From assembly GCA_013289765.1 (NCBI GenBank), contig JABCZI010000007.1, positions 186,001 to 250,000 on the forward strand: DNA of 64,000 bases, in the 5' to 3' direction. The notes beneath the pieces were generated by a model, which saw nothing but the letters and a program-made list of their open reading frames with translations, was not told the origin of the DNA and made no database searches. Shown piece after piece: positions 2,215-57,600 of the stretch. The position numbers and the translations under genes are program-made. Source of the stretch: Acidobacteriota bacterium (GTDB taxonomy: Bacteria; Acidobacteriota; Terriglobia; Terriglobales; Acidobacteriaceae). Position 1 is the stretch's first letter. Each line of letters opens with the position of its first letter.

Positions 2215-2547
2215 ATGGAACGGACGATATCAACCAAGGACCTGAGGGCTAAGCTGGACCGGAAAGAGTCGATCAAGGTGATTGAGACTCTGGCGCCAGA
2301 GCGTTACCGCGAGGCTCATCTTCCGGGGGCATTGAACATTCCGCCTGAAAAAGTTAGAGAACTAGCGCCGCAGTTGTTACCAAACAAGGATGCTGAAATC
2401 GTCACGTACTGCAGCAATAATCATTGACACGCCAGCGAATACGCCGCCCGGGAATTGGCGGCTATGGGTTACACGAATGTGGCGCATTATCCCGAGGGCA
2501 AGCAGGGATGGATTGAGGCGGGTCTGCCCACGGAGAAGGCTGCGTAG
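2215..2547 (+). CDS. Rhodanese-domain protein with in-frame UGA (candidate selenoprotein)
   Basis: This is a single rhodanese (sulfurtransferase) domain of 110 codons. ATG is preceded by GGAGGT at close spacing. Residues 1-70 run through ALNIPPEKV to the active-site loop YCSNNH. Codon 71 is TGA (2425-2427). The same frame continues as HASEYAARELAAMGYTNV and ends GKQGWIEAGLPTE at TAG 2545-2547, which is a complete, normal rhodanese C-terminus. I recall relatives having Cys before the HAS (YC-x4-C-HAS), so UGA stands where Cys is expected. A GC-rich hairpin follows at 2443-2462. Read as Sec it is a full-length selenoprotein; the alternative is a one-base nonsense mutation of TGC/TGT. A second rhodanese gene at 56635-57600 shows the same arrangement. 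Confidence 0.8.
2443..2462 (+). promoter_or_regulatory. Candidate bacterial SECIS hairpin downstream of UGA
   Basis: A 6-bp perfect stem GCCGCC/GGCGGC closes an 8-nt loop CGGGAATT. The loop begins after 21 nt from the UGA at 2425-2427. Known bacterial SECIS elements have their apical loop roughly 16-37 nt after UGA and a G in the first two loop positions, and both conditions hold. Ala-rich helices encoded with GC-rich codons can form hairpins by chance, so this supports the call without proving it. Confidence 0.5.
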
Positions 2548-2781
2548 CGTGGGGGTCTAAATCAGAGCTTGTCTTTCTTCTTTCTTCTTTCGCCCCTATG
2601 GGGCTCTGAGTATTTTTGCACCTCACCCACGGCTTGCGCCCCTTCGACAAGCTCAGGGCAAGCTGTGGGCTGCATTCTTTCGCCGCTTCGCGGCCGAGTG
2701 CAATTCAGAGATTTTAATCAGCACGCTGAACGCAATCCTGCCAATCCAGCAACAGAGACTGGGCTACACTAGCTCCCTCAC
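2548..2781. repeat. Intergenic region with dispersed repeat
   Basis: There is no gene here. A segment at 2641-2665 (ccttcgacaagctcagggca) resembles, in inverse orientation, the sequence agcttgtcgaagggcagga near 9567. It is a short intergenic repeat. Confidence 0.45.
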
Positions 2782-3237
2782 ATGAAATCCGCCGACAATC
2801 GGGTGATTCGCCTGATCGCATTGTTTAAGTTGTTCAAGGCAATTCTTTTGATCGCGGTGGGGATGAGTGCGCTCCATCTGATTCATAAAGACGTTGCGAG
2901 CGTAGTGCAACACTGGGTGAAGATGCTGGGGCTGGTTCCGGGCAATCGGTACGTCGACGAGGCGCTTCAAAAGGCGGGCAATCTGACTCCAGGCAAGATA
3001 AAAAGTCTCGGAGTTGTCAGCTTTCTTTACGCGGGACTATTTCTGACGGAGGGGATCGGGCTCTGGCTGGTGAAACGTTGGGCGGAATGGTTCAGCGTAA
3101 TTATTACGAGTTCGCTGGTCCCGATTGAGGTTTACGAGATATGCCGCCATCCAAGCATCATCAAGAGCCTGGTACTCATTTTTAATGTTGCGGTAGTGGG
3201 ATACCTTATCTATCGAATCCGCAACGAACGTGGCTAA
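2782..3237 (+). CDS. DUF2127 family membrane protein
   Basis: This 151-aa protein has about four predicted membrane segments: FKLFKAILLIAVGMSAL (14-30), VVSFLYAGLFLTEGIGLWLV (75-94), a helix starting near 104, and SLVLIFNVAVVGYLIYRI (130-147). The pattern, and the motif around GLFLTEGIGLWLVKRWAEW, match the DUF2127 family, whose function is unknown. No operon partner is evident: the flanks are spacers of more than 180 bp. Confidence 0.75.
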   Translation: MKSADNRVIRLIALFKLFKAILLIAVGMSALHLIHKDVASVVQHWVKMLGLVPGNRYVDEALQKAGNLTPGKIKSLGVVSFLYAGLFLTEGIGLWLVKRWAEWFSVIITSSLVPIEVYEICRHPSIIKSLVLIFNVAVVGYLIYRIRNERG

Positions 3238-3422
3238 GGTCTGTGAGCTTTCAGATGGTTCCCGAGTAGCGAGCACACCCGAAAGAACCAAGACTCAAAT
3301 GAGAAAACGGCGGAGTCGCAGAATTTGTCCAGCCTTAGTTCCGGTTGGACAGTTTCGGTTCGTATAGACTTTGATTTTGCGCTGCGCCGTCGAGGGGACG
3401 AAATTATCCAGGAGAAAGCGGT

Positions 3423-5063
3423 TTGCCAGTCACTAAGGATGCCCTCTGGTACAAAGACGCGATCATCTATCAGGTGCACGTCCGCACGTTTCAGGACAGC
3501 AATGGGGATGGGATTGGAGATTTTCAAGGGCTTGAACAAAAGCTCGATTATCTTCAGGAGCTTGGGGTCAACACGATCTGGCTCATGCCATTTTTCCCTT
3601 CGCCACTGCGCGATGATGGCTACGACATCGCAGATTACAGGGCGGTGCATTCAAGCTACGGAACGTTAGAAGATTTCCGCAAGGTGCTCGATTCAGCCCA
3701 CCAGCGAGGGCTTCGCTTGATTATTGAGCTGGTGTTGAATCACACTTCCGACCAGCACCCCTGGTTTCAAGAGGCGCGTAGTTCGCAGAACAATCCCCGC
3801 CGCGACTGGTATGTGTGGAGCGATACCGAGGCCCGATACAAGGGAGCCCGCATCATTTTTCTCGATACGGAGACCTCCAACTGGGCGTGGGATCCGATCT
3901 CAAAATCTTTTTATTGGCATCGCTTCTTCAGTCACCAGCCCGATCTCAACTATGACAATCCCGCGGTTCGGGAAGAGATATGGGATGTGATGAAGTTCTG
4001 GCTGGAGATGGGCGTGGATGGGTTCCGTCTGGATGCGGTGCCGTATCTGGTGGAGCGGGAGGGCACCAATTGCGAGAACTTGCCGGAGACGCACACGATT
4101 CTGAAAGAGTTGCGGCGGAAACTCGACGAACAATTCCCCGGCCGGATGCTTCTGGCGGAGGCCAATCAATGGCCAGCGGATCTTCGCCCGTATTTCGGTG
4201 ACGGAGATGAATTCCACATGGCGTTTCATTTTCCGCTGATGCCCAGGATGTTCATGGGGCTGAAGCTGGAGGACCGCAAGCCGATCACTGAAATCCTGCA
4301 ACAGACTCCGGAAATCCCGCCATCGTGCCAGTGGTCGCTGTTCCTGCGCAACCACGATGAGCTGACGCTGGAAATGGTGACCGACATCGAACGCGACTAC
4401 ATGTATGACATGTACGCGGAAAGCAAGACGATGCGGCTGAACCTGGGAATCCGGAGGCGGCTGGCTCCATTACTGAACAACGATCGCAGGCGTATCGAGT
4501 TGATGAACGGGATGCTGATGTCGTTACCGGGTACCCCTATTATTTATTACGGGGACGAAATCGGAATGGGCGATAACATTAGTTTGGGCGACCGCAATGG
4601 AGTAAGGACTCCGATGCAGTGGAACGGGGGATGGAACAGCGGTTTTTCCATAGCAAAGCCGGAGCAGTTGTATGCTCCCCTTATTCAGGACCCGGTGTAT
4701 GGTTATCCCGCGGTGAACGTGCTGTCGCAAAGAGAAAGCGAGCACTCGCTGTTTCGCTGGATGCAACGCATCGTAAGCGTCCGCAGAGCGACGGCAGCGT
4801 TCGGCAGGGGATCGATTGAGTTTCTGTATCCCGCCAATCACAGAATCCTGGCCTATTTGCGGCGGCTGGGTCGAGAAACCGTACTCGTGGTCAATAATCT
4901 TTCGAGTACTGCGCAAGCCGTCGAACTGGATTTGCAACGCTACAAGGGAAATATCCTGGTGGAGATGTTTGGCAACAATATATTTCCGCGTGTGGGCGAT
5001 TTGCCCTATCTGCTAACGATGGGGCCTTACCAGTTTTACTGGTTCCGGTTGCGACGGGTCTAG
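3423..5063 (+). CDS. treS: Trehalose synthase (maltose alpha-D-glucosyltransferase), GH13
   Basis: TreS interconverts maltose and trehalose, a compatible solute, in the cytoplasm. The protein is 546 aa, the usual length without a fused maltokinase. GH13 motifs are in order: DGYDIADY (65-72), [14 protein letters not shown] (102-115), nucleophile Asp204 in [10 protein letters not shown], acid/base Glu246 in LLAEANQW, and His311-Asp312 in FLRNHDE. The opening [15 protein letters not shown] is typical of TreS. The start is TTG, with AGGAGA nine nt upstream. It is followed without spacing by a glycosyltransferase and then a channel-like gene, which suggests an osmotic-stress operon. A related alpha-amylase specificity is less likely. 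Confidence 0.92.
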
Positions 5064-6401
5064 ATGATGGAAACGCTATCACCGGGCGCGTCTTCACGCG
5101 GACGTGCGGAAGTAATTCATACCGAGCTGAAATTGGAAGACGAGACTTTTCTAACGGACGATTTTCTTCGCCAACTAATCAATGTCGGCGAAGTAGACAT
5201 CCTTGTGGGCTTGGCCACACACAACAACGCCAAGACGATCGGGTCGATCGTCCAAACGATTCAAAGCGGCATTCTGCAAGCCTTTCCCCGCGAGCGAGCT
5301 GTAATTATTGATGCCGATGGGGGATCGCACGATGGGACTCCGGAACTGGTGACGGGCGTTTCTATCGATGATGTGCGCCGAGCTACCAATCCGTATGCGC
5401 TGCGCACGCTGCACTCAATAAGCACGAAGTATGCCAGCAGCCCGGCGAGCGGAGTTGCGTTGCGGACTATTCTGGCCGCGGCCGACCTGCTGCGCGCCAA
5501 AGCCTGTATTGTGATGTCACCCGAGTCCGCAAGCATTGAACCGGAATGGGTCTCAAAACTTCTGCGCCCCGTCTATCGCGACGGCTTCGATCTGGTGACC
5601 CCCACCTATCGCAGACACAAGTTTGAAGGGCTGTTGATGACGAACTTGCTGTACCCGATGATCCGCGCTCTTTATGGGGAGAGGATCCGTGAGCCATACA
5701 GCTCTGAGTTCGGATTCTCCGGCCGTCTGGGAAGTCAATTCCTAAACCAGAATGGCTGGAATGATGGGGGCGGTGGCGCCGGCGTCGAACTTCGTTTCAC
5801 GCTTGCGGCGATCACGGGAGGATGCCGTATCGGCCAGTCCTTTCTTGGAGAAAAAGATCACGTCGAGCGCCACGCTGCTGATCTGGTGCCGACGCTGCGA
5901 CAAACCGTGGGCTCCATGTTCTCGGCGTTGGGGGCAGACTTTCCAGTATGGAGTGTGGTGAGCGGTTCCCAGCCGATTGCTACAACGGGGAGCGACCAAG
6001 AATTGCTTCTGGGACCAATGCGAATCAATCGGAAGCGACTCCGCGACATGTTTTCGACCGGTGTCGCCGAATTGGAGTCTGTCTTTCAATCAATTCTTTC
6101 TCCGACCACGCTGGCAGAACTCCAGCGAATCGCACATCTGGGAGAAGAGGAATTCCATTACTCGGCGGAATTATGGGTCAGAACGGTTTACGAGTTTGCC
6201 GCCTCGTATCAGAAATCGGTGATTAGCCGGGACCATATTATTCAGGCTCTCGCACCGCTTTTCCGCGGGAGAGTATTCACGTTTCTGACAGAGAACCGCA
6301 ATGCTTCCGCGAGCGAAGTCGAGAACAATATCGAAAATTTGTGCCTGGAGTTTGAGCGATTGAAACCTTATCTGCTGCAGATGTGGAAATCCAGAGAGTG
6401 A
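5064..6401 (+). CDS. GT-A fold glycosyltransferase, possible glucosyl/mannosyl-glycerate type
   Basis: This 445-aa cytoplasmic protein has no signal peptide. Its N-terminal half looks like a nucleotide-sugar GT-A fold: VDILVGLATHNNAKTIGSIV (44-63), then IIDADGGSHDGT (81-92) in the place of the nucleotide/metal-binding Asp residues. The C-terminal half (about 300-445) is helical, as in glucosyl-3-phosphoglycerate and mannosylglycerate synthases. The start codon touches the treS stop, so the two are translationally coupled. I infer that it makes a glycosylated compatible solute; the acceptor cannot be read from the sequence. Confidence 0.6.
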   Translation: MMETLSPGASSRGRAEVIHTELKLEDETFLTDDFLRQLINVGEVDILVGLATHNNAKTIGSIVQTIQSGILQAFPRERAVIIDADGGSHDGTPELVTGVSIDDVRRATNPYALRTLHSISTKYASSPASGVALRTILAAADLLRAKACIVMSPESASIEPEWVSKLLRPVYRDGFDLVTPTYRRHKFEGLLMTNLLYPMIRALYGERIREPYSSEFGFSGRLGSQFLNQNGWNDGGGGAGVELRFTLAAITGGCRIGQSFLGEKDHVERHAADLVPTLRQTVGSMFSALGADFPVWSVVSGSQPIATTGSDQELLLGPMRINRKRLRDMFSTGVAELESVFQSILSPTTLAELQRIAHLGEEEFHYSAELWVRTVYEFAASYQKSVISRDHIIQALAPLFRGRVFTFLTENRNASASEVENNIENLCLEFERLKPYLLQMWKSRE

Positions 6402-6408
6402 GGCAACT

Positions 6409-7113
6409 ATGCGGGAAATGATTATCAGCGAATTGACTCAGGCGTTGCACGAACTGGCCAGAGATTTCGCCCACTTCCTTCCGCGGCTCATCGTGATGTT
6501 GATCCTGGCATTTCTGGGCTGGTTGATTGCGTACGTTGCAAAAGTGGTTCTGCGCAGCATCCTAAGGCTCATCAAGTTCGATAAGCTTTCAGAAAATGCG
6601 GGCGCCTCGCAACTGTTGAACAAGGCGGATCTGCCGTCGGCGACGGAAGTGTTGAGCCGATTTGTCTTCTGGGTGGCATGGCTCGGCTTTATTCTGCTGG
6701 GCGTGAGCGTGCTCGGGATCCTGGGCCTGCAGGAGCAGATCGCGAAATTCTTTCTTTTTCTGCCGCGCCTATTCGTGGCGTTGTTTATCATGTTTTTCGG
6801 GCTGCTGGCGGCTAGTTTTTTTTCGCGCGCTGCGCTGCTGGCTGCAGTCAATGCGAATGTTCCTTCTCCCCGGGTGTTGAGCCTGGCGGTCCGCAGCATC
6901 ATCGTGGTTTTCGTATTGTCTATCGCCTTCGAAGAGTTGGGCCTTGCCGAACAGACCATGTTGGTTGCCTTCGGGATTGCTTTCGGAGCCCTGATGCTTG
7001 GCTTGGCCATCGCATTCGGTATCGGCGGAAGAGACTTGGCCAAACGGTTCCTGGAGAAAAAATTTGTTCGCAGCAAGCACGAAGAGGGCGAAGACGAGCT
7101 CTCAGCGCTATAG
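6409..7113 (+). CDS. Small mechanosensitive-channel-like membrane protein
   Basis: This 234-aa protein has four or five hydrophobic segments. The repeated helix pattern RLIVMLILAFLGWLIAYVAK (26-45) and RLFVALFIMFFGLLAASFF (about 120-138) matches the conserved TM-helix repeat found in CmpX-like proteins and MscS relatives. The last segment, GIAFGALMLGLAIAFGIGGR, is Gly/Ala-rich like an MscS pore helix, but there is no MscS beta domain. It is 7 nt downstream of the glycosyltransferase, third in the operon. A role in osmotic adjustment fits the context but is inferred. Confidence 0.7.
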   Translation: MREMIISELTQALHELARDFAHFLPRLIVMLILAFLGWLIAYVAKVVLRSILRLIKFDKLSENAGASQLLNKADLPSATEVLSRFVFWVAWLGFILLGVSVLGILGLQEQIAKFFLFLPRLFVALFIMFFGLLAASFFSRAALLAAVNANVPSPRVLSLAVRSIIVVFVLSIAFEELGLAEQTMLVAFGIAFGALMLGLAIAFGIGGRDLAKRFLEKKFVRSKHEEGEDELSAL

Positions 7114-7137
7114 TGCGGGGACCTTCCGGGGAATAGA

Positions 7138-8661
7138 TCATCGATCGTAGAGAAGCGTTAGCCGGCGTAAGTGCTCAATCATTTCTTTCGTCAGGTTCTC
7201 GCGTTTAAAGCGCCATTTCCAGTTTCCACTTAAAGTACCGGGCAAATTCATTCGCGCAGCACTGCCCAGACCCAATACATCCTGCAAGGGAACGATGGCC
7301 ATATTAGCGACGGACGCCAGCACGGTACGAATGAACACCCAATTCACCGGCTCGTCTTGAAAGGCCAAGTACGCCCGGGTGAAATCGTGTTCATTTTGAA
7401 TTTCTTGCGGGGTCCGAGTACTCTCGCCGACACCCGAACTGGTCCACCATCCAACGGTGGTGTCGTTGTCGTGTCCTCCTGTGTACGCGACAAGTTCGCG
7501 AGAATAATTGTGAGGACGGAAGCTGGGCCCTTGAGGATCGTTTCCGAAAGCAAACTGAAGCAAACTCATGCCGGGGAATCCGAATTGGTTGCGAAGAGCT
7601 TCTACTTCGGGAGTAATCACACCGAGATTTTCAGCAACGAATGGCAGTTCCTTCAATTCAGTTTGTAGAGTTTGGAAAAAATCCGCACCAGGACCTTTTA
7701 CCCACTTGCCTCCGGCCGCGGTCGAAGCGCCGGCTGGGACTTCCCAGTAAGCCTCGAAGCCGCGGAAGTGATCCAACCGGACAAGGTCGAACAATTTGAG
7801 AGAGGCGCGGACGCGGTCAATCCACCAGCGGTGACCGGATGCCGCGGATACGTCCCAGCGATAGAGAGGGTTTCCCCAGAGTTGACCGGTCGCACTGAAA
7901 TAATCCGGGGGAACTCCGGCAACGGCGCTGGGCTTGCCTTGTTCATCCAAACGAAAAAGCTCAGGATGAGCCCACACATCAGCGCTATCGTGAGCGACGT
8001 AGATTGGGATGTCGCCCATGATTCTTATCCCGCGCCGAGCGCAGTGAGCTTTCAACTTTTCCCACTGTTGAAAGAATTCGAATTGCGCGAACTTGTGAAT
8101 CTCCGTCTCGGACGATAGTTTGTCTTGCCATTGCTTTAGCGCAGAGGGATCGCGCTGACGTATTTTCTGGTCCCCATGGGTCCAGGCCGCGTCGTTGTCG
8201 AAACGCTTGCAGGCCATGAAGAGCGCGTAATCGTCGAGCCAACTGCTGTTGGTTTGGCAAAAAGCGTCAAAAGCGTGACGGTCAGGTGGGGCGGCATCGC
8301 CGAGAAAGGCCTGCGCGGCTTTGCGCAGCAGCGCCTGTTTGAAGTTGATTACGCGGTCGTACTCGACGTGCTCCTCGGGGAAAGCCGGAGTGTTGGTCAG
8401 GTCTTGCGCAGAGAGAAGGCCTTGCTCATGAAGCTCGCTCAAATCGATGAACAGGGGATTGCCGGCGAACGCCGAAAAGCATTGGTAAGGGGAGTCGCCG
8501 TATCCCGTGGGACTCAATGGCAATACTTGCCAGATCTTTTGCCCTGATTCGGCCAAGAACTCCACAAACTCATGAGCCGAATTTCCGAGATCGCCAACAC
8601 CGTGGTCGCCGGGCAGAGATGTGACATGGAGAAGGATTCCACTACACCTAGGAAAGATCAC
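7138..8661 (-). CDS. malQ: 4-alpha-glucanotransferase (amylomaltase)
   Basis: MalQ transfers alpha-1,4-glucan segments and releases glucose in maltodextrin/glycogen metabolism. From the GTG at 8661 the protein is 507 aa, the usual length for the short amylomaltase type. Motifs: LLHVTSLPGDHGVGDLG near the N-terminus, GYGDSPYQCFSAFAGNPLF, GDIPIYVAHDSADVW, nucleophile Asp in VRLDHFRGFEAYW, acid/base Glu in VAENLGVITPEV, and GGHDNDTTVGW. The frame stays open to 8817, but that would overlap the divergent SDR gene and adds sequence unlike the family. It converges on the trehalose operon (25-bp gap), linking maltodextrin and trehalose metabolism. Confidence 0.93.
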   Translation of the reverse strand: MIFPRCSGILLHVTSLPGDHGVGDLGNSAHEFVEFLAESGQKIWQVLPLSPTGYGDSPYQCFSAFAGNPLFIDLSELHEQGLLSAQDLTNTPAFPEEHVEYDRVINFKQALLRKAAQAFLGDAAPPDRHAFDAFCQTNSSWLDDYALFMACKRFDNDAAWTHGDQKIRQRDPSALKQWQDKLSSETEIHKFAQFEFFQQWEKLKAHCARRGIRIMGDIPIYVAHDSADVWAHPELFRLDEQGKPSAVAGVPPDYFSATGQLWGNPLYRWDVSAASGHRWWIDRVRASLKLFDLVRLDHFRGFEAYWEVPAGASTAAGGKWVKGPGADFFQTLQTELKELPFVAENLGVITPEVEALRNQFGFPGMSLLQFAFGNDPQGPSFRPHNYSRELVAYTGGHDNDTTVGWWTSSGVGESTRTPQEIQNEHDFTRAYLAFQDEPVNWVFIRTVLASVANMAIVPLQDVLGLGSAARMNLPGTLSGNWKWRFKRENLTKEMIEHLRRLTLLYDR

Positions 8662-8740
8662 CCGATCAACGTTATGCTTCAAAGGGCAGAGCACGCAAGG
8701 GGGAAGCGGCTCCGATAGAATCAGTCGAATCCACAGGTGA

Positions 8741-9541
8741 ATGGAATTGGTGAATTTTTCCGGGAAAGTATCGCTTATCACAGGGGCGGGCAGTTCGCAG
8801 GGGATAGGTTTCGCCACTGCCAGGTTGCTCGCTCAACATGGATCGAAAGTTGCAATTACTTCCACGACGGAGAGAATCCAGGAGCGCGCCTGCGAACTAG
8901 TGGCAGAGGGTGCCGATGTTTTTGCTTTTTCAGCGGACTTGCGCGATCACGCGTGTACTCAGGCGCTGGTTCAGGAGGTGCTCGCTCGCTACGGCCGCAT
9001 CGATATTCTCGTCAACAATGCCGGCATGACACAGGTTGGGAAGCCTACGGAGACGACCGCGCAAGCTCTGGTTGAACTCTCGGAAGAACAGTGGGATTAC
9101 GGCATCGCGATCAATCTCAAGACGGCTTTTAACATCACCCGGGCCGTTCTGCCTTGCATGCTGGGCGCAAAGTATGGGCGAATCGTGAATGTGTCTTCGG
9201 TCACGGGCCCGGTCGTCAGCAATCCTCGCGAGACTGCGTATAGTGCGGCCAAGGCCGGCATGGTCGGGCTCACTCGCAGTCTCGCGCTGGAAGTCGCGCG
9301 GCAGGGAATCACGGTGAACGCGGTTGCGCCGGGCTGGATCGAAACGGCGTCTTCAACCCAACACGAAATCGTCGCCGGTAAAAATACTCCGATCGGCCGC
9401 CCCGGACGGTCGGAAGAGGTTGCGGCTGCAATAGCATTTCTAGCGGACGAATCCGCGTCTTACCTCACGGGCCAACTGATCGTGGTCGACGGAGGCAATT
9501 CCGTTCAGGAGTACAAAGGGCCGCCCGAGTCCTACTACTGA
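8741..9541 (+). CDS. SDR-family oxidoreductase (FabG-like)
   Basis: This is a classical short-chain dehydrogenase of 266 aa. It has the glycine-rich NAD(P)-binding segment TGAGSSQGIGFATA (15-28), the NNAG motif, catalytic Ser in NVSSVTGP, and catalytic Tyr/Lys in YSAAK. The C-terminus (FLADESASYLTGQLIVVDGG) is FabG-like. The substrate is unknown. AGGTGA directly abuts the ATG at 8741, so translation may really begin at TTG 8747 or GTG 8750. It diverges from malQ. Confidence 0.88.
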   Translation: MELVNFSGKVSLITGAGSSQGIGFATARLLAQHGSKVAITSTTERIQERACELVAEGADVFAFSADLRDHACTQALVQEVLARYGRIDILVNNAGMTQVGKPTETTAQALVELSEEQWDYGIAINLKTAFNITRAVLPCMLGAKYGRIVNVSSVTGPVVSNPRETAYSAAKAGMVGLTRSLALEVARQGITVNAVAPGWIETASSTQHEIVAGKNTPIGRPGRSEEVAAAIAFLADESASYLTGQLIVVDGGNSVQEYKGPPESYY

Positions 9542-9629
9542 GCAAGCGAGTACGGAGGAATAAGCGAGCTTGTCGAAGGGCAGGAACGCGACCCATCCAG
9601 GCAGGGTTTCCATCGCTAAATTACCAGTG

Positions 9630-9658
9630 TTGACAATAGTCGTTGTAACGAGTATTAT
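9630..9658 (+). promoter_or_regulatory. marR promoter with embedded MarR-type operator
   Basis: TTGACA (9630-9635) and TATTAT (9653-9658) are separated by exactly 17 nt. The spacer holds a 22-bp imperfect palindrome (9635-9656) with half-site AATAnTCGTT. The same palindrome recurs at 10145-10166. The ATG of marR is only 10 nt after the -10, so the transcript probably has almost no leader. The layout indicates autorepression. Confidence 0.82.
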
Positions 9659-9667
9659 CGTAATTGC

Positions 9668-10132
9668 ATGAAGGCAGCGACGCAGACGAGGAACAAGGAG
9701 CACCGCGTGGGCAGCGCCGAGGAATCGGCTTTCCTGGACCTGCTGCGAACGACCGACATGCTTTCGCGCGGGTTGATGATGGTGCTGAAGACCGAGGATC
9801 TGTCCTCTACGCAATACAACGTACTGCGCATACTGCGCGGTGCGCGAGAGGGGTTGCCTTGTGGCGAGATTGGGAGCCGCATGATTACGCGGGATCCCGA
9901 CATAACCCGGCTTCTGGATCGTATGGAGAAGCGCCGCCTGATCTCACGCTGCCGGGAAACGAAGGACCGGCGCATGGTGATGGCGCGCATTACGCCCGAG
10001 GGCCTCAAGGTAGTGGGTGGCCTGGATGAACCTGTGCAGGCCGCCCATCGCAAGCAATTAGGCCACTTAGGGCGAGAGCGCCTGCGGGCGCTGACGGAAT
10101 TGCTATCGCTTTCACGGAGCCGCCTCGTTTGA
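9668..10132 (+). CDS. MarR-family transcriptional regulator
   Basis: This 154-aa winged-helix repressor has the MarR arrangement: an N-terminal dimer helix (LLRTTDMLSRGLMMVLK), LSSTQYNVLRILRGA, recognition helix ITRDPDITRLLDRMEKRRLI, and the wing RETKDRRMVMARITPEG, followed by C-terminal dimer helices. ATG is 10 nt from a strong -10 element. It should bind the palindromes at 9635-9656 and 10145-10166, controlling itself and the yceI-pirin pair. The ligand is unknown. Confidence 0.92.
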   Translation: MKAATQTRNKEHRVGSAEESAFLDLLRTTDMLSRGLMMVLKTEDLSSTQYNVLRILRGAREGLPCGEIGSRMITRDPDITRLLDRMEKRRLISRCRETKDRRMVMARITPEGLKVVGGLDEPVQAAHRKQLGHLGRERLRALTELLSLSRSRLV

Positions 10133-48696: not shown

Positions 48697-51462
48697 CTAG
48701 TGATCTGCATCGTGCGCCGGAGTCTGGCGCCGCAATTCTTCCCACATCCCCACAACTCTCGCTCTCAGTTCAGCAGTCAGCTCATCGTATGCCGCTTCCG
48801 ACGCCTCGCTCTCAGGCGGCGGAATTATCGGATCGCCAAACACTATCTTCAGCGGCGTGAATCCCTGGAACGGTTTATTTCGCGGCCACGCTTTGTAAAA
48901 GCCTTCAATCGCTATCGGCACAATCGGTACTTGCAGATGAATGGACAAAATTGCCGCGCCCTTCTTGAATATCCTCGGCGTACCGTCAATCGAGCGTTCG
49001 CCCTCGGGATAAAGAATGAGGGGACGCCCCTGCCGTAAGCCGAACGCTCCGGCGCGCATCGCAGGAATCAGATGCGCATCCGGATCGACAACCACAGTCC
49101 GCAGCGTGCGCGCCAGTCGCAGCATCAGACCCTTCCCGAAAATTTCGCTGGTGCCAACGGCAAAAACCCTTTCGAACACGGGAGGCGGAAGAACGCTGGC
49201 CAGGATCAGCGGATCGAGATAGCTCTGGTGGTTGGATGAAAGTATGTACGCGCCGCTTCGCGGCAGCTTCTCGATCCCGCTGACATGCAGATCAAAGCGG
49301 TCGAGCGCGATAACTTGGGTCAATCGTGAAAACACGTACCAGAAAGCAGCGCTCACTGGTTGCGGCCGCACCAACGCGAGCACATCGGTGCGTTCTGGAT
49401 CTTCGGAGAGGATAGTCTTCCATCCGGCAAAAGCTGGGCGTGTTCCCGGGCCACCCGCGCCGCTGGCCGCGCTTTGCAGAACCGCATCCACCAGGTCTCT
49501 TACTGTGTAGATCTGGGCGAGTTGTGACTCTTCCACGTTTCCGCCGAGCTGTTCTTCGATATGGCTCAGCAGTTCGACGCGCTGCATGGAATCGAGTCCT
49601 AGGTCGAGTTCGAGGTTGTGCGTCGGCCGCAAACTTGGCGGAGCGGATCGCGACGCTTCGCGGATAATCTGCAGCGCTCGCTGCACATCAGGCTGGTCAA
49701 GCCATGCGGATTCCTCGGGGGTTAACGGTTGTTCGACAGGTAAGTCCGAATCATCGGCAAGTTTTCGAGTCTGGTTTGCCTTTATCCGCTTTTCGATTTC
49801 GAAGCGTTTGATCTTGCGGGTGCTGGTGCGTGGCAAATCCTCCTGCCAGATTTCATAGCTGCCAATGCGTTTGGTGGAGGCGATCTGTTGCGAGAGCCCC
49901 TCAATATCGAACCGAATTACTTCCTTTGCATTCACAATCTTCTTCTGCCGCAGCGCGTCGAAATTAGGCACGATCACTGCGTGCAAGCGGTCCCCGCCTT
50001 CACCCGGCTTTCCTTCGAGCCCGATTACCGCCAACTCTTTGATATACGGCGATTTCAAATAGTGCGCCTCGACTTCTTCGGGATAAATATTCTTCCCGTT
50101 GCTAAGTACGATCACTTCTTTTTTTCGGCCGGTGAGAAACAGGTTGGCATGGGCGTCAAAATAACCGAGATCGCCAGTGTAGAACCATCCCTCGCGCAGG
50201 ACCTCCGCCGTTGCGTCGGGCCGGTTCCAGTAACCTTTCATCACCACTGCCCCGCGCAAAGCGACTTCGCCAGTGGCCGGGCCGTCTTCCTGGGGCTGAG
50301 GATCCACTATCTTTCCCTCGACTCCCTTCATTGCCTTGCCCACCGACCCAATCACGTTATTGCCTGGCGAGTTTGCGTATACCGCCGCCGTAGTTTCCGT
50401 GAGACCGTAGGCTTGCAGGACGTCAATACCAAGCGCGTGAAAGTCGCGGCCAATTTCCGGGTCAAAACGCGAGCCGCCCGTTGCCAGGTAGCGCATCTTC
50501 TCGCCCAGAGTTTCATGCACTTTCTTGAACAGAATCGGTCCAGCATTGATCCCTACCCTGCGCAGCGCGCGGTTCAACGCCATCATGCGCCGGAATATTT
50601 TCTGCGTGAGCGCGCCTCGCTTGGCGACTTCCTGGAAAATACGCTCGTGAATCAGATAATAGAATTGCGGCACAACGGCAAACGCAGTGATGTTGCGCTC
50701 GCGCAAGGCGCGCAGGAGTTCCGTTGTGTTCAGCGTTTCGAGATAGACAACCCGCGAACCTTTCACCAGTGGCAAAAGTAGATTTGCCATCTGCGCCAGG
50801 ACGTGAAACATGGGCAGCACACCCAGCAGTGCGTCCGTAGGACCGAGATCGATCCAGTTGAACACCGCTTCCACTTCTCCCATAAAATTAGCGTGGGTGA
50901 GCATCACGCCCTTTGGATCTGCGGTGGTCCCGGACGTATAGAGGAGGGAAGCGATGTCATCCGCCGACGAGGTTGCGGGTTGAAAACTTCCCGAGCCGCC
51001 ATCGAAGATTGCAGATAGATTACCCAGCCATTTCTCGTTGCCGGGCTTGTTTTCCGCGCGCTCTGGATCCATCAGCACGAGACCTACGTTAAGGCCCGAA
51101 ACTGCTTCTCGCGATACTTGTGCATGCTTCGTGTCGCAGAATAAAACGGATGTCCCGCTGTCTTTCAACAGTTTCGAGAGTTGATCGGCGTGCAGCGCGG
51201 TATCGAACGGGACCACTGTGCATCCCGCCGCAATCACGCCGAGATAAGCCGCGACCCACCGCGGATGGTTGTCCGCCAAAATTGCCAGCCGCGCTCCGTG
51301 CTCGAACCGGTTTTCACTGATCCATCGCCCTACAGATTCCGCCATCCGCCGAAGCTCAGCGTACGTGCAACTCTCGATATGATCGTGACCCTGGAGTTCC
51401 AGTGCGACGTTGCTCGGCCAGCGATCCGCGCATTCGACAAAACGGTCGTAAAAAGTGGGCAT
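48697..51462 (-). CDS. Acyl-AMP ligase / acyl carrier / PlsC acyltransferase fusion
   Basis: This 921-aa protein is built from three parts. Residues about 1-560 are an acyl-CoA/ACP synthetase ([58 protein letters not shown]). Residues about 620-690 are a carrier domain with the phosphopantetheine Ser in [14 protein letters not shown]. Residues about 720-915 are a PlsC acyltransferase with SSNHQSYLD (HxxxxD) and [10 protein letters not shown]. The enzyme could activate a fatty acid, load its own carrier and transfer it to a lysolipid, a variant of the Aas pathway. ATG 51462 is chosen because the family begins there; the frame is open to 51531. It diverges from secA. Confidence 0.88.
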
Positions 51463-51593
51463 GCTTCGTGGGGAATATACACGAAAAGTGTATTCACCGC
51501 CGGGCTCGCGCCGAACACCTGTTCGGCGCATCTAAATATGCTAGGCTAAAAGGGATACGCTGGTGGCAGTCCTGCCCCGAGGGATTTCAAGGT

Positions 51594-54500
51594 TTGATTA
51601 ACACACTAATAGGTAAGGTCTTTGGGACCAAAAACGAGCGGGTCATCAAGAGCTTGATGCCCAGGGTCGAGGCTATCAACGCGCTCGAACCGCAGATGCA
51701 AAAGCTCACCGATGACGAACTGCGCGCCAAAACCGACGAATTCCGCAAAAGAATTCAAGAGCGCCTGAGTCGCGTCAACACAGCAGTGGAGCCGGAACCA
51801 CAGGCCGAAGAGCAGCTGGAAACGGCAGTCAATCCCGACCGCGCCAAGCAGTTCGATAAAGAGCAATACGACACTCTTCAGGAAGTTCTGGACGAAATCC
51901 TGGTAGAAGCTTTCGCCGTGGTACGCGAAGGGGGACGCCGTGTGCTCAACATGCGCCACTTCGACGTGCAGCTGATCGGCGGCATGGTGCAACACAAGGG
52001 AATGATTTCGGAAATGAAGACTGGCGAAGGTAAAACGCTGGTCGCCACGCTTCCGGTATACCTGAACGCGCTCAGCGGCCGCGGCGTGCACGTGGTTACC
52101 GTCAACGACTATCTGGCCAAGCGCGACTCGGAGTGGATGGGTAAGCTCTATCGCTTTCTCGGCCTGACGGTTGGTGTGATCGTTCACGATCTTGACGACG
52201 AGCAGCGCCGCGCTGCCTATGCCGCCGACGTCACGTACGGCACTAATAACGAATTTGGTTTCGATTACCTGCGCGACAATATGAAGTTCGATCTGAAGGA
52301 TTGTGTGCAGCGCGGCCACAATTTCGCGATCGTCGACGAAGTCGATTCCATCCTGATCGACGAAGCCCGCACTCCGCTGATCATTTCAGGCGCAAGCGAA
52401 GAATCCACCGACAAGTATTACCGTGTAAACCGCATCATTCCGAAACTTGAAAAAGGTGAGGAACTTGAAGTCGCCCCCGGCGAAGCCGCGCAGCTGACCG
52501 GCGACTTTGTCGTCGACGAAAAGCACCGCAACATCACCGTCACCGACGAAGGCTGGACAAAAGTCGAGCAACTGCTCGGCATCGGCAACATTGCCGACCC
52601 GGAAAACTGGCCGCTCAAGCATCACGTCGAAACCGCTGTCAAAGCGCATGCGCTCTATCGCCGCGACGTGGAATACGTGATTAAAGATGGCGAGGTCATC
52701 ATCGTCGATGAGTTTACGGGACGTATGATGCCGGGCCGCCGCTGGTCCGACGGTCTGCATCAGGCCATCGAGGCCAAGGAAGGCGTGAAGATCGAGCGCG
52801 AAAATCAGACCCTCGCTACCATCACCTTTCAAAATTACTTCCGCATGTTTAAGAAGCTGTCGGGCATGACCGGCACTGCTGAAACGGAAGCTACTGAATT
52901 CGACAATATTTACAAACTCGACGTCATCGTCATTCCGACCAATAAACAGATGCTGCGCCTGGAGAATCCGGATGTAGTTTTCCGTACCGAGAAAGAAAAG
53001 TACTTCGCGGTTGCGGATGAAATTCAAAAGCTGCATGAAAACGGACAGCCGGTTCTGGTCGGCACGACTTCCATTGAAAAATCCGAGCGGCTTTCCGAAT
53101 TGTTGAAGAAAAAAGGCCTGAAACAACACGTTGTTCTGAACGCCAAGTTCCACGAGCGCGAGGCTGAGTATGTGGCCCAGGCCGGGCGTAAAGGCATGGT
53201 CACCATCGCCACCAACATGGCCGGCCGCGGAACTGACATTCTGCTCGGGGGCAATCCCGAATTCATGGCCAAGCAGGAGTTGGTGAAGAAGGGAATCGCC
53301 CAACAACTCCGCGTTGCTCAAGGCAAGATCGAAGGTCCGCAGGAAGATGGCACGATTTCAATTTTCTACTACAACGGCAACGAATACACCGTGCCCACCG
53401 ATAAATGGACCGAAGCTTTCGACCGCCATAAGGAGCAGACCGACAAAGAGCACGACGAAGTTACCGCTGTCGGTGGCCTGCACATTCTCGGCACTGAACG
53501 CCACGAGTCGCGCCGCATCGACAACCAGCTTCGCGGACGCGCCGGCCGTCAGGGCGATCCCGGCTCCTCGCGGTTTTATCTCGCGCTTGAAGATGACCTG
53601 ATGCGCATCTTCGCCAAAGAGTGGGTTTCGAAATTGCTTGAACGCTTGGGGATGGAAGAAGGTGTTCCGATCGAATCCAAGCTGATCAGCCGGCGCATCG
53701 AGACCGCACAAAAGGCGGTTGAAGGCCAGCACTTCGAATCCAGAAAACATCTCCTCGAATACGACGATGTCATGAACAAACAGCGCGAGGCCGTGTATGG
53801 CTTGCGCCGCCGCTTGCTCGAAGGCATGGATCAGAAAGATCTGATCCTCGAAGACTACGTCTCAGCCATTCTTGGCGGTCTCATGGACGAATACTGTCCG
53901 CCTAAAGCGCACGCCGACGACTGGAATATTAAAGGACTGAAGGACGCTGTATTCACGCGCTTCGGCGTCGATTTCATCGCGGAGGGTGTGAAGCCGGAAG
54001 CGCTGAACCGGCAGAACCTGGGCGACGCGATTTTCGAAAAGCTGAAAGAACGCTACGACGCGAAAGAAAAACTCATCGGCCCTGACGCCATGCGCCATCA
54101 CGAGCGCATGATCATGCTTAGCGTGATCGACCAGCAGTGGAAAGATCACTTGCTGAGCATGGACCATCTGAAGGAGGGCATCGGCCTCCGCGGTTATGGC
54201 CAGCACGATCCGCTGGTCGAATATAAGAAAGAATCGTTCGAGATGTTCGAGGCGATGCTGCAGCGCTTTCAGGAAGACACGGCCCGCTATCTTTACCTGA
54301 TGCAGATTATTGAGCGTCCGCCAGATGCGGGGCCGAGTGGTCCACAAGGAGACGAGCCCTCGGGCCATGGTCCGGAGCCTGGAGTGCCCTCGCAGCAGGG
54401 AACGGGCGGAAATGGACATCGCCCTCCACGCCTCGTCGCGACGTCCGCCGACGATCTGGAAGAAGCCTTCATGCGCCGCAAGCGCCGCGAACTCGAACAG

Positions 54501-54629
54501 GCGCGCATGGCCGGCGGCGGAGAAGTGCAGCCTGTTCAGCAAGTCGTTCGCGGAGAGGAAAAAGTGGGCCGGAACGATCCATGCCCCTGTGGATCGGGTA
54601 AGAAATTCAAGAAGTGCCACGGGGCGTAG
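51594..54629 (+). CDS. secA: Preprotein translocase ATPase SecA
   Basis: SecA drives proteins through SecYEG. From TTG 51594 the protein is 1011 aa and begins [20 protein letters not shown], the usual start; GAGGGA lies about ten nt upstream. Walker A is in [14 protein letters not shown], the DEAD-type motif in [20 protein letters not shown], then [33 protein letters not shown] and [15 protein letters not shown]. The C-terminus has the zinc-binding SecB-type tail [17 protein letters not shown] after a Gly/Pro-rich linker. It is longer than the E. coli protein by about 110 aa. Confidence 0.97.
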
Positions 54630-54643
54630 AAGAGCAATGACGA

Positions 54644-54691
54644 ACATGTAGGACAGCCGCCCTCGGCTGTCCAGTCGGGCGAAGCGCGACT
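54644..54691. repeat. Dispersed 3'-end hairpin repeat, copy 3
   Basis: It contains GGACAGCCG, a short CCCT loop and CGGCTGTCC, followed by AGTCGGGCGAAGCGCGACT. It lies between the converging 3' ends of secA and the CYTH gene and overlaps the latter's stop codon by two bases. This is the most compact copy of the family. Confidence 0.85.
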
Positions 54692-55247
54692 AGTTCTTGG
54701 TTGCCGCGAAAGTCATTTCTTCGGCGTGGCTGTTTGATCGCCCCTTCCACTCCGCAAATAATCCCGCATAATTCGTCGTAATGTAATCCGCCTCGCTCAC
54801 TCCCAGCTTTTTCGCCGTCGCATCAATCCACCGCGGCATCCCCTCGATCTCGCAGAAGTTTCCAATGGGCGTTTCATCTACTACGACCTGCCCTTTCCCG
54901 TCCGTCCACTCAGCTCTAAATTTCTCGTAGCGAAACGACGGCGCATATCCCAAAGCCCGCAGGATCAAATCCATCTGCTTCCCATCTTCTACTGAAGTTT
55001 CCAACTCTTCGCGGCTGCTGTGCCGTCCGGTCTTCTTGCCGGACTTATGCGTCAGCGTCCACTCTGATCCGTACTGGCGCAGCCGCAACAATTCTTTGCG
55101 ATTCCGCAATACTCCTCCCGGCAGATCGTAAAGCGTATTCATCTCGTGCGTGCGCCGCGTGGTCATGCGAAATCCTGCGGCCCGCAACTTGCGCGCCAAC
55201 GCCCGCAAGTCCTCTACACGAAATTTGATTTCGATTTCCTGCGCCAT
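54690..55247 (-). CDS. CYTH-domain phosphohydrolase/cyclase-like protein
   Basis: This 185-aa protein has a CYTH fold, as in class IV adenylate cyclase and triphosphatases. It starts MAQEIEIKFRV with the ExExK metal/phosphate motif. NRKELLRLRQYGSEWTLTHK, KFRAEW, VVVDETPIGNFCEIEG and the C-terminal YAGLFAEWKG are conserved positions. Triphosphate hydrolysis is the likely reaction; the substrate is unknown. ATG 55247 is chosen because the family begins there. It is 14 bp downstream of the MFS gene, so the two are probably co-transcribed. Confidence 0.85.
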   Translation of the reverse strand: MAQEIEIKFRVEDLRALARKLRAAGFRMTTRRTHEMNTLYDLPGGVLRNRKELLRLRQYGSEWTLTHKSGKKTGRHSSREELETSVEDGKQMDLILRALGYAPSFRYEKFRAEWTDGKGQVVVDETPIGNFCEIEGMPRWIDATAKKLGVSEADYITTNYAGLFAEWKGRSNSHAEEMTFAATKN

Positions 55248-55261
55248 CTGATGGAAGTTTA

Positions 55262-56551
55262 TTACAGAGGAACAGCGTCCGTCGTCGGAGAGTGGGCGCG
55301 TCCATAGGGAGATCTGCGGATTCTTTTCTGCCACTGTACCGGCTCGATGGGGCCGACGGCAAAAACCCAAGTAAGCGCGCCCAGCCATGAAACCAGGCCG
55401 GTAATCAAAAAAGGCCAATAAAACTGGCCGGTGCGGTTCAGCACGAAACCGGTAATTGCGGGGGCGAAGCCGCCTCCCAAGCTTCCTATGAAATTTTGCA
55501 CTCCGACCCAACGTCCTGAGCACTGCGGGCCAGCCAGAGTCTGCGTGACGGCCCAGCAGTGGCATGAGGTCATTCCCATGAAAATTCCGGCCGCCGCGAG
55601 CACCCAGATAAAAGTATCGCCCGGTGTAACGGCGGAGGCAGCCAGAGAAATTCCAACGCCGATCATTCCCACGCCCATCGATGTCTTTCTCACACGGGTT
55701 GCCGACGCACCCGCGGCGATCCACCGGTCCGAAAGCTTGCCTCCCACCAGCGCCGAAGCCGCCGCCAGGAAAAAGATCAATCCCCCGACCCTGGCCATTT
55801 GATTCATTGAGAGATTACGGGAACGCACCAGATAAAACGGCAACCACGCCACCAAAAAATACAGAACGTAATTCATGCAGAGCAGTCCAACGCTGGTTCC
55901 CCAAGCCGAGCGTTCGCGAAGAATATCGAGAAAACCTACCTTATATTCGTCGGCGGGCGCCGGTGTGGTTGTGCCAGCCGGCATCCAGGCAAGCCATGGA
56001 ATCAGCCATAGTAGGCTTCCAAGGCCCAGCACCAGAAAGAAAGGTCGCCAGCCAAAGCGGCCAACCACGGTCCCTCCGACCAGCATGCCGATGGCTGGTC
56101 CTAAAGAAAGTCCGGCCATGATTGCTGCATTAGCGATGCCGCGTTTGTTCTCGCCAAAGTAGCGACTGCTGAGAATTTTGGAGTACGCCGGGAATGCTAT
56201 CGATTCACCGATGCCCAATACCACCCGAATAACAATCCAGGCCGTGAACCCGTGCAACAGTCCGGTGACTGCCGTGGCCGCCGACCACACGAAGAATCCC
56301 GCGGCAAACACCCACTTCACTTCGAATCGATCGACGAACCATCCGGCGGGAATTTGCATGCAGCCGTAGGTCCAGAAGAATACAGAGAGCAGAGTGCCGA
56401 GTTGTGACGCCGAGAGCCCCAATTCGTTCTTCAACAGCGGAGCTGCAATCGAGAGGTTGCTGCGGTCGACGTAGTTAATGAAAACCGAAACGGCAAGAAG
56501 AAGAACTACGCGATTCATTCCGCGTGAGGCGTGGGTGGTTGGGTTGCTCAT
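55262..56551 (-). CDS. MFS transporter, anion:cation symporter (hexuronate-type) family
   Basis: This 429-aa protein has 12 predicted membrane helices. The N-terminal FINYVDRSNLSIAAPLLKNE and WTYGCMQIPAGWFVDRFEVK, and RVVLGIGESIAFPAYSKI, are typical of the ACS branch, which carries organic anions such as glucarate or hexuronates. The substrate cannot be fixed from sequence. It is 83 bp downstream of the DedA-rhodanese gene on the same strand. Confidence 0.9.
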   Translation of the reverse strand: MSNPTTHASRGMNRVVLLLAVSVFINYVDRSNLSIAAPLLKNELGLSASQLGTLLSVFFWTYGCMQIPAGWFVDRFEVKWVFAAGFFVWSAATAVTGLLHGFTAWIVIRVVLGIGESIAFPAYSKILSSRYFGENKRGIANAAIMAGLSLGPAIGMLVGGTVVGRFGWRPFFLVLGLGSLLWLIPWLAWMPAGTTTPAPADEYKVGFLDILRERSAWGTSVGLLCMNYVLYFLVAWLPFYLVRSRNLSMNQMARVGGLIFFLAAASALVGGKLSDRWIAAGASATRVRKTSMGVGMIGVGISLAASAVTPGDTFIWVLAAAGIFMGMTSCHCWAVTQTLAGPQCSGRWVGVQNFIGSLGGGFAPAITGFVLNRTGQFYWPFLITGLVSWLGALTWVFAVGPIEPVQWQKRIRRSPYGRAHSPTTDAVPL

Positions 56552-56634
56552 TCAGGCGAAACTCGACAATGCTACACCATGGTGGAGTTATTCGGGAATT
56601 TGTTGTCGGAAGGAAGAAGTCCAACGACCAGCGG

Positions 56635-57600
56635 CTAATTAAACGTCGGCAACTTCACGAGGTCATTTTCCGGAACAGCCTCAAGCGGTTCCCCGGCTTT
56701 TCGCCATGCGGTCAATCCGCCGACGATCACAAACGTGTTGAAGCCTTTTTCCCGCAGCAGGTGCGCCACCCGGGCGCTGGTCGCTTCGCGCGCTCAAGTA
56801 CAATAAAGATAAATGTCCTTGTCTTTTGACAGATTCTTGATCTCTTCCTCAAGATTGTTGGGCTCAATCCGGATCGAATTCTTAATGCGCGCCGCACCCG
56901 AATCGTAATAGCCATGGCTGCGGACGTCAACGATTTGAACCCGGCCGGCATCGGTTGAAGCGAGCCGCGCGGCTAACTCTTGCACTTGAATGCGCGGCAC
57001 CACCCGGTAGACTTTGTGCTTCCGGTATTGCAGGATGCGGTAACCCGCATACACCGCTAGCGCAATGATAATCACCGCTTCCATGGCGCGCCCCGCCGCG
57101 TGAAAACCACGCAGGATTGCCGCCAGAAAATCACGCGAGAGATATCCCACCGCAAGATACGTAACGGAATAGGTCAACGCGCCCAGAAAATCCAAACGCA
57201 AGAATTGCCCAAAGCGCATCTTCATGCTGCCGGCCAGCGGCGCCGCCATGGTGTTCACGCCGGGGATGAACTTCGCGATCACCAGCGTGATCCTGCCGCG
57301 CTTATAGAACGATTCGGCCGAGCGCAGAATGCAGGTTTCCGGATTGATCGACACGCGGCATAAGAATCCCAGCAGCGCCCAGCCCATGTATCGTCCCAGC
57401 CAAAATTGAACGGTATCGCCCAGCAACAATGCGGTGACGCACGCAAACAAGACATACGGGCCCCACAACGTATGCGCTGCCACAGCCGCCCCTGCTGCCA
57501 CCAGAGCAATTGCAGCGGGGAAAGGTAGTCCTATCGCTTCCGCCAACAACAACGCGAACGTCAAGGCATATCCGTGCCGCGCCATCAAGAACAGATTCAT
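56635..57600 (-). CDS. DedA-family membrane protein fused to rhodanese, in-frame UGA (candidate selenoprotein)
   Basis: This is 321 codons in one frame. Residues 1-190 form a DedA/SNARE-associated domain (LLLAEAIGLPFPAAIALVAA, FIPGVNTMAAPLAGSMKM, FLRLDFLGALTYSVTYLAVG), a membrane fold linked to lipid transport. Residues about 205-315 form a rhodanese domain: VQIVDVRSHGYYDSGAARIK, then IYLYCT, then UGA (56794-56796) as codon 269. The frame continues AREATSARVAHLLREKGFNT, VGGLTAWRKAGEPLEAV, and stops at TAG 56635-56637. I recall relatives reading YCTC at this loop, so UGA again replaces a Cys. A hairpin follows at 56763-56777. Full-length reading needs Sec insertion; without it the protein loses the last 53 residues of the rhodanese fold. 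Confidence 0.82.
56763..56777 (-). promoter_or_regulatory. Candidate bacterial SECIS hairpin downstream of second UGA
   Basis: On the minus strand a 5-bp stem GCGCC/GGCGC closes the loop CGGGT. The loop starts after exactly 21 nt from the UGA at 56794-56796, the same distance as at 2425-2462, and both loops begin CGGG. Part of the match comes from the codons for the homologous Ala-Arg in the rhodanese helix (GCC CGG), so it is suggestive only. Confidence 0.5.

What the first reader, a model, noticed from the sequence alone, without database searches (positions are those of the whole stretch)
2425..56796. Two unlinked UGA rhodanese genes share position, hairpin distance and loop start
Two genes of the same fold, on opposite strands and 54 kb apart, each carry one in-frame UGA just after the active-site Cys. 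In both, a GC-rich stem follows whose apical loop begins after 21 nt, and both loops start CGGG. Known bacterial SECIS rules (loop about 16-37 nt after UGA, G among the first two loop bases) are met. A UGA-as-sense genetic code is excluded because many genes here end properly in UGA, including 4-bp overlaps. Two chance nonsense mutations at equivalent Cys codons are unlikely. Caveat: part of the hairpin match comes from homologous Ala-Arg codons.
Basis: partly seen in the sequence, partly recalled or inferred. Interest (0 to 1): 0.9.

Follow-up and report, generated by a model that had tools for sequence, protein, structure and literature searches.

The report
Two selenocysteine rhodanese genes, Acidobacteriota
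Two genes that look cut short by a stop codon are almost certainly read through with the rare amino acid selenocysteine, in a soil-type bacterium many of whose relatives carry cysteine there instead.

Summary
The selenocysteine (Sec) reading is strongly supported. Both rhodaneses carry one in-frame UGA (2425-2427 +; 56794-56796 -) and a GC-rich hairpin whose loop starts after 21 nt. On single sequences the hairpins are not significant. Relatives (Acidobacteriota, Ca. Sulfotelmatobacter-like) decide it. At the UGA of the DedA-rhodanese gene relatives have TGA or Cys codons, nothing else, in 148 rows read (27 rows repeat others). The full hairpin stem is kept in 105 of 106 TGA rows but 2 of 41 Cys rows, and its codons are the most constrained synonymous sites of the gene only in TGA forms. 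selB is found in 69 of 79 TGA genomes, 2 of 35 genomes whose gene has no in-frame stop. The own genome has selA, selB and a selD that itself carries UGA. selC was not found in this draft but is in its genus. Correction: the UGAs are not at equivalent residues (C-x4-U, C-x-U), so the hairpin tracks the UGA, not homologous Ala-Arg codons. Sec-rhodaneses are a known kind; these look like new variants.

The parts
2215..2547 (+). P0001: single-domain rhodanese, 110 aa with UGA read as Sec; motif YC-SNNH-U (C66-x4-U71)
   Evidence: PF00581 E 6.7e-16; GGAGG at 2205-2209, 5 nt before the ATG (read)
2425..2427 (+). in-frame UGA (Sec codon) of P0001
   Evidence: of 31 homologues read, 20 have TGA, 7 Cys, 2 Trp, 2 do not align there
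2443..2462 (+). SECIS-like hairpin GCCGCC-CGGGAATT-GGCGGC; loop starts 21 nt after UGA
   Evidence: stem of 6 bp or more at this place in 19 of 20 TGA, 1 of 7 Cys, 0 of 2 Trp homologues; peak of synonymous constraint in 19 TGA orthologues
56635..57600 (-). P0002: VTT/DedA membrane domain fused to C-terminal rhodanese, 321 aa with UGA read as Sec; motif LYC-T-U (C267-x-U269)
   Evidence: PF09335 E 1.5e-10 and PF00581 E 7.5e-13
56794..56796 (-). in-frame UGA (Sec codon) of P0002
   Evidence: 50 TGA and 19 Cys among 69 orthologues that I chose to fetch; 57 TGA, 22 Cys, 1 not covered among the 80 best named loci
56763..56777 (-). SECIS-like hairpin GCGCC-CGGGT-GGCGC; loop starts 21 nt after UGA

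Best explanation
Both genes are selenoprotein genes. The UGA is read as selenocysteine: SelA and SelD make Sec-tRNA(Sec), and SelB brings it to the ribosome when it binds the hairpin that starts about 15 nt after the UGA and whose loop begins after 21 nt. Supported here by comparative sequence: translation past UGA, UGA/Cys exchange, selection on the hairpin, and co-occurrence with selB. Inferred: the identity of the inserted residue (no protein data) and the chemistry. My most likely mechanism for the proteins: the first Cys of the rhodanese loop accepts a sulfane sulfur as persulfide; the Sec in the same loop (C-x4-U or C-x-U) attacks it to release sulfide and form a Cys-S-Se-Sec bond that a thiol donor reduces, i.e. 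a persulfide reductase or redox relay rather than a plain thiosulfate:cyanide transferase. In P0002 this domain is tethered to a DedA/VTT membrane protein. The confidence given is for the decoding; for the chemistry I would say 0.4.
For: Own genome: selB 355.5 bits, selA 545.7 bits for both pieces, selD 373 bits with an in-frame TGA followed by a hairpin. Relatives: every P0002 orthologue row printed has either one TGA or no stop; 69 that I fetched read 50 TGA and 19 TGC/TGT, and the 80 best named loci 57 TGA, 22 Cys, 1 not covered. Hairpin: codons +6 AGC, +7 GCC, +9 GTG, +10 GCG are 50 of 50 in TGA forms, the top 5-codon window of 325 columns (excess 0.613, window sd 0.091); in 19 Cys forms that window scores 0.154, seventh highest (sd 0.064). 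All five stem pairs form in 50 of 50 and 55 of 56 TGA rows, in 1 of 19 and 1 of 22 Cys rows. Two stem pairs show double changes, which 0 of 500 shuffles reach. selB: 69 of 79 TGA genomes against 2 of 35 no-stop genomes, Fisher p 1.7e-17 (the genomes are related, so the p is only indicative). selC in same-genus G006: RF01852 72.3 bits, ARAGORN tRNA-SeC. A third rhodanese gene beside the P0001 orthologue in G292 has a UGA and gcgcc-AGTTT-ggcgc at the same 21 nt.
Against: selC was not found in the own assembly by Rfam, pattern, family model, flank search, or at contig ends. Hairpins of the two window genes alone do not beat shuffles. Ten of 79 TGA genomes lack a selB over the cut-off: four of them have selC, two (G024, G057) have neither, four were not tested for selC; the six are 65-85% complete. 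TGA row L278 lacks the stem; P0001-type L113 has no uninterrupted stem there. Two Cys rows (L170, L266) and P0001-type Cys row L116 keep a full stem, and a G in the first two loop bases is nearly as common in Cys rows (18 of 19, 20 of 22), so that rule does not discriminate. Covariation is thin: two double changes among 50 distinct rows; slid versions reach one, and one slid version has a higher covariation score, 0.071 against 0.040. The chemistry is not tested.
Confidence: 0.95

Rival explanations
1. The UGA is read as cysteine by an opal-suppressor tRNA(Cys) (selC*-like), with SelB as carrier.
For: Such tRNAs are described for some other bacteria, and allo-tRNAs with 8/4 or 9/3 shape for Acidobacteria (PMC7609411, passages seen); Cys replaces the residue in relatives; no selC seen in the own draft.
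Against: The UCA-anticodon tRNA of five relatives, one of the same genus, scores as tRNA-Sec, and the own genome has selA and selD, which a Cys system would not need. The own genome's tRNAs were surveyed only through Rfam and R1 matches.
Confidence: 0.03
2. Nonsense mutations or pseudogenes; the downstream part is not translated.
For: Two truncated ORFs in a draft genome.
Against: The whole protein, on both sides of the UGA, aligns at 52-91% identity in the 49 other TGA orthologues of P0002 read, with one TGA and no TAA/TAG inside the rows printed; in the rows read the codon changes only to Cys codons.
Confidence: 0.005
3. General UGA reassignment in this organism.
For: None beyond the two genes.
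Against: 11 of 40 large ORFs in the window end in TGA; read past the TGA most give short or unrelated extensions (by eye).
Confidence: 0.005
4. Sec is inserted, but the Sec is the sulfur- or substrate-binding residue itself and the first Cys only resolves it, or the protein is a peroxidase or metal-binding protein rather than a persulfide handler.
For: One UGA orthologue, L106, has Trp where the first Cys should be and keeps the Sec.
Against: The first Cys is kept in all 69 P0002 orthologues read and in the other 19 P0001 UGA homologues; it takes the place of the rhodanese active-site Cys (recalled from the family).
Confidence: 0.4

Closest known systems
NF041203 rhodanese_LYCAU, rhodanese-related (seleno)protein; 'rhodanese-like domain-containing protein form 3', motif CxU (PMC13188914, passages seen)
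   Same: P0002's rhodanese domain matches it best (83.9 bits) with the same LYC-x-U motif; all 15 members of alignment A2 match it at E 1e-5 or better
   Different: P0002 is under the curated cut-off of 115 bits and is fused to a VTT/DedA membrane domain; the model is 126 positions long
TsoB, rhodanese/DsbD fusion-like selenoprotein NF045694, motif UxxxxU (PMC13188914, passages seen)
   Same: Best NCBIfam match of P0001 (47.2 bits); a Sec at the second end of the same 4-residue spacing
   Different: P0001 keeps Cys at the first position, is 110 aa against a 572-position model, and is far under the cut-off of 805
Other Sec-rhodaneses: forms 1, 2, 4 with motifs UxxS or UxxG (PMC13188914), COG2897 (PMC1088965) and COG0607 (PMC2398784) forms; passages seen
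   Same: Rhodanese-type proteins with Sec encoded by UGA
   Different: The motifs as listed show no Cys before the Sec; here a Cys is kept and the Sec is a second loop residue. I did not align those proteins
DedA/VTT family, including undecaprenyl phosphate transporter UptA models
   Same: N-terminal domain of P0002: PF09335 E 1.5e-10; UptA models match at 42.2 and 31.8 bits
   Different: Under both UptA cut-offs (300, 250); carries a C-terminal Sec-rhodanese

Membership tests
Bacterial selenoprotein gene | In-frame UGA conserved, with Cys at the same place in homologues | tested here: met
   P0002: 50 TGA, 19 Cys of 69 fetched by choice (one weaker row, L102, left out); 57 TGA, 22 Cys, 1 not covered of 80. 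P0001: 20 TGA, 7 Cys, 2 Trp, 2 not aligned of 31
Bacterial selenoprotein gene | Hairpin just downstream of UGA, kept in UGA forms | tested here: met
   Full stem in 105 of 106 TGA rows (1 of 107 too short to judge) and 2 of 41 Cys rows; P0001 type 19 of 20 TGA, 1 of 7 Cys, 0 of 2 Trp. The G-in-loop rule is met but does not discriminate
Bacterial selenoprotein gene | selA, selB, selD in the genome | tested here: met
Bacterial selenoprotein gene | selC (tRNA-Sec) in the genome | tested here: inconclusive
   Not found in the own draft; strong match (84.8 bits or more) in 56 of 100 family genomes incl. same-genus G006 and G082
Bacterial selenoprotein gene | Selenium in the protein | not testable with these tools
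   needs protein
Rhodanese domain PF00581 | Score over gathering cut-off | tested here: met
   59 and 49.2 bits against 22.2
VTT domain PF09335 (P0002) | Score over gathering cut-off | tested here: met
   42 bits against 33.9
NF041203 rhodanese_LYCAU | Score over curated cut-off 115 | tested here: not met
   P0002 83.9, P0001 40.7
NF045694 TsoB | Score over curated cut-off 805 | tested here: not met
   P0001 47.2, 110 aa only
selC*/opal tRNA(Cys) system | UCA tRNA with Cys identity in place of tRNA-Sec | tested here: inconclusive
   In the 5 relatives scanned the UCA tRNA is RF01852/tRNA-SeC, which speaks against it; the own genome is not resolved

The most novel reading that the evidence does not exclude
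A selenium-dependent switch on an envelope-lipid transporter: across Acidobacteriota a DedA/UptA-like membrane protein has a rhodanese domain whose Cys-x-Sec pair senses or clears reactive sulfur and gates lipid-carrier recycling, with Sec where selB exists and Cys where it does not. The lineage would also use one near-fixed SECIS 'word' (GCGCC-NG-GGCGC or the like, loop 21 nt after UGA) in different slots of different genes, so that new Sec sites are made by placing this word at a fixed distance.
Probability: 0.2. Interest if true: 0.75.

Novelty: new variant of a known kind. Interest (0 to 1): 0.55.

Why it matters
A gene caller that stops at UGA loses part of the rhodanese domain of P0002 and the C-terminal third of P0001, and neither reaches the cut-off of any NCBIfam selenoprotein model. 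The P0002 family is a large natural experiment: dozens of Sec and Cys forms of one protein, with some Cys forms nested inside the Sec clade, in which the full hairpin goes with UGA. The two window genes also have hairpins at the same distance from UGA in different slots of one fold, which separates RNA constraint from protein constraint.

Tried and rejected
Single-sequence folding statistics: not significant, kept as a result against. A pattern match for selC in the own genome (C3:47975-48015) is not a tRNA by ARAGORN and scores nothing with the family model. RF01852 hits in the own genome that I looked up (8 of 11) were ordinary tRNA-Ser, Gly, Arg, Leu and Trp. Looking for selC next to selA, selB and selD: nothing. 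Looking for the flanks of the G006 copy: only weak hits at 65-67% identity inside its cytochrome-like ORF. Looking at 4-kb ends of all 18 contigs: only known tRNAs. Other UGA-ended large ORFs of the window read through: no further convincing selenoprotein (judged by eye, no homology search). Structure prediction was not run.
Full report
WHAT IS THERE. The first gene (2215-2547, +) encodes a 110-aa single-domain rhodanese if its UGA at 2425-2427 is read through; the second (56635-57600, -) encodes a 321-aa protein with an N-terminal VTT/DedA membrane domain and a C-terminal rhodanese, with the UGA at 56794-56796. The motifs are YC-SNNH-U-HAS and LYC-T-U-AREATS. This needs correction: the UGA is 5 codons after that Cys in the first gene and 2 codons after it in the second. 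A direct alignment pairs the two Cys and the two Ser that close the loop, and puts the UGAs in different columns.

HAIRPINS. Hairpins GCCGCC-CGGGAATT-GGCGGC and GCGCC-CGGGT-GGCGC begin their loops 21 nt after UGA. As single sequences they are weak evidence: z-scores 0.39 and 1.86, i.e. no more stable than shuffles; 346 and 162 of 5000 synonymous recodings are as stable, and 861 and 265 of 5000 have as long a stem at that place. Because the UGAs sit in different slots, the Ala-Arg codons under the two hairpins are not homologous: the Arg lies 5 residues after the shared Ser in the first and 2 after it in the second. The equal distance to the UGA is therefore a property of the RNA.

RELATIVES. 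The window belongs to a 4.8-Mb, 18-contig genome, 97.63% complete. Among its nearest relatives in the P0002 tree are Candidatus Sulfotelmatobacter MAGs, Acidobacteriota. In 300 genomes of its family the P0002 orthologue rows that were printed have one TGA or no stop (capped list). I read codon by codon 69 P0002 orthologues: the 30 best loci of the search and 39 that I asked for, 20 with TGA and 19 without, so the ratio is mine. They give 50 TGA and 19 TGC or TGT. Of 31 P0001 homologues (30 best loci plus one asked for), 20 have TGA, 7 Cys, 2 Trp, and 2 did not align there. The 80 best named loci give 57 TGA, 22 Cys and 1 that does not cover the site. 27 of the 79 readable named rows repeat unnamed rows.

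SELECTION ON THE HAIRPIN. Measured as excess identity of synonymous codons, codons +6 to +10 after UGA are the most constrained five-codon window of the 325-column gene in 50 TGA orthologues (0.613; sd of windows 0.091), with AGC, GCC, GTG and GCG in 50 of 50. The 29 under 70% identity to the window gene give the same (0.611). In 19 Cys orthologues the same window scores 0.154, seventh highest (sd 0.064). In 19 P0001 TGA orthologues (L112, a fragment, left out) the top window starts at codon +7 (0.518, sd 0.106). Stem pairs counted directly: all five form in 50 of 50 and 55 of 56 TGA rows (one row too short), and in 1 of 19 and 1 of 22 Cys rows; most Cys rows keep 3 or 4 of 5. For P0001, an uninterrupted stem of 6 bp or more at this place stands in 19 of 20 TGA, 1 of 7 Cys and 0 of 2 Trp homologues. 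A G in the first two loop bases is common in Cys rows too (18 of 19, 20 of 22), so it has no weight. Of 106 TGA rows of P0002 type, 103 have GCGCC/GGCGC, L268 has GTGCC/GGCAC and L255 GCACC/GGTGC (both sides changed), and L278 lacks it. On 50 distinct stretches 99.2% of cells pair and two pairs have double changes, which 0 of 500 shuffles reach; slid versions reach one, and one slid version has a higher covariation score. In the P0001 set L110 replaces Ala by Ser and keeps a hairpin at the same place by another pairing. A third rhodanese gene, next to the P0001 orthologue in same-genus G292, has its own UGA (YCTUPDEGSS) and gcgcc-AGTTT-ggcgc again 21 nt after it.

MACHINERY. selB (355.5 bits), selA (545.7 bits for both pieces) and selD (373 bits) are in the own genome. 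selD has an in-frame TGA (KAAG-U-ASK) followed by a hairpin. selC is the gap. It was not found with Rfam, a pattern (one chance match), a model built from 18 family members, the flanks of the G006 copy, near selA/selB/selD, or in 4-kb ends of all 18 contigs. In the family it is clear: 56 of 100 genomes have a match of 84.8 bits or more (counted), G006 and G082 of the same genus among them, and five examples are called tRNA-Sec by Rfam and by ARAGORN. The 41 tRNA matches of the own draft include no tRNA-Cys(GCA) or tRNA-Ile(GAU), so the draft or the screen misses essential tRNAs. A selC in a gap is the simplest reading.

CO-OCCURRENCE. Of 79 genomes with the TGA form, 69 have selB over the cut-off; of 35 with a no-stop form, 2 do (G214, G259). 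The codon was read as Cys in 18 of the 35. Of the 10 TGA genomes without selB, 4 have selC (G036, G071, G077, G092), G024 and G057 have neither, and G192, G282, G288 and G294 were not tested for selC; these six are 65-85% complete. A tree of 118 P0002 proteins (79 Sec, 39 Cys) needs at least 5 label changes, 3 forced by well-supported branches; Cys forms L226/L230 and L253 lie inside the large Sec clade and form 4 of the 5 stem pairs.

HOW IT MOST LIKELY WORKS. Decoding: standard bacterial Sec insertion at UGA by SelB and a local SECIS (supported by comparison, not by experiment). Chemistry (inferred): the first loop Cys is the persulfide-forming Cys of rhodaneses (family knowledge); the Sec in the same loop makes a Cys/Sec redox pair that would release sulfide and be reset by a thiol. 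One UGA orthologue (L106) has lost the Cys but keeps the Sec, which leaves open that Sec is the key residue. For P0002 the link to the DedA domain suggests chemistry at the membrane; what it serves is unknown.

KNOWN OR NEW. Sec-rhodaneses are known. A 2026 review table (PMC13188914, passages seen) lists five forms: UxxS, UxxG, CxU (NF041203), UxxG and UxxxxU (TsoB). P0002's domain resembles the CxU form but is under its cut-off and is fused to DedA; P0001 (CxxxxU) resembles TsoB's spacing but is a short single domain far under its cut-off. A full-text search for selenoprotein + DedA + rhodanese gave 0 papers, and one for Sulfotelmatobacter + selenocysteine 0; the library holds only open-licence papers, and PMC12013261, cited in the review for TsoB, was not held. 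Acidobacteria were credited with 3 selenoprotein families in a 2006 table (PMC1794560, passages seen) and one acidobacterium with 3 known and no new selenoprotein genes in 2025 (PMC12013277, passages seen). I therefore call these new variants of a known kind.

Noticed in passing
L102 (same-genus G292:C158), minus strand beside the P0001 orthologue: A second, adjacent UGA-containing rhodanese (YCTUPDEGSSAS) with the same hairpin distance; Sec-rhodanese genes can be paired.
   Followed up: partly
L071 (G055:C54), 1501 and 1656: A partial second copy of the 3' half of selC 155 bp downstream, as an island that integrates into selC would leave; second, weaker model matches lie close to selC also in G050 and G090, and 30 kb away in G004.
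   Followed up: no
Family genomes G000, G001, G007, G051, G060, G068, G074, G084, G094, G096: selB without a strong selC match in 10 of 60 selB-positive genomes of the first 100 (G051 has a 58.3-bit match). G060 is put at 100% complete, so a divergent or filtered-out selC is possible.
   Followed up: partly
L106, L119, L121: L106 has Trp in place of the first loop Cys with Sec kept; L119 and L121 have TGG at the Sec codon, one base from TGA.
   Followed up: no
L170, L266 and P0001-type L116: Cys forms that still have a full stem at the SECIS place: chance, or recent loss of Sec.
   Followed up: no
L289 3442-3487 (own genome, start of C2): Rfam Acido-Lenti-1 RNA, 50.4 bits.
   Followed up: no
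L047 7982-10771 (own genome selB): The selB ORF is open some 280 codons upstream of the SelB homology; a caller taking the first start would make it too long.
   Followed up: no
L267: A record titled Gammaproteobacteria whose P0002 homologue lies among Bryobacterales in the tree; perhaps a mislabelled or mixed bin.
   Followed up: no
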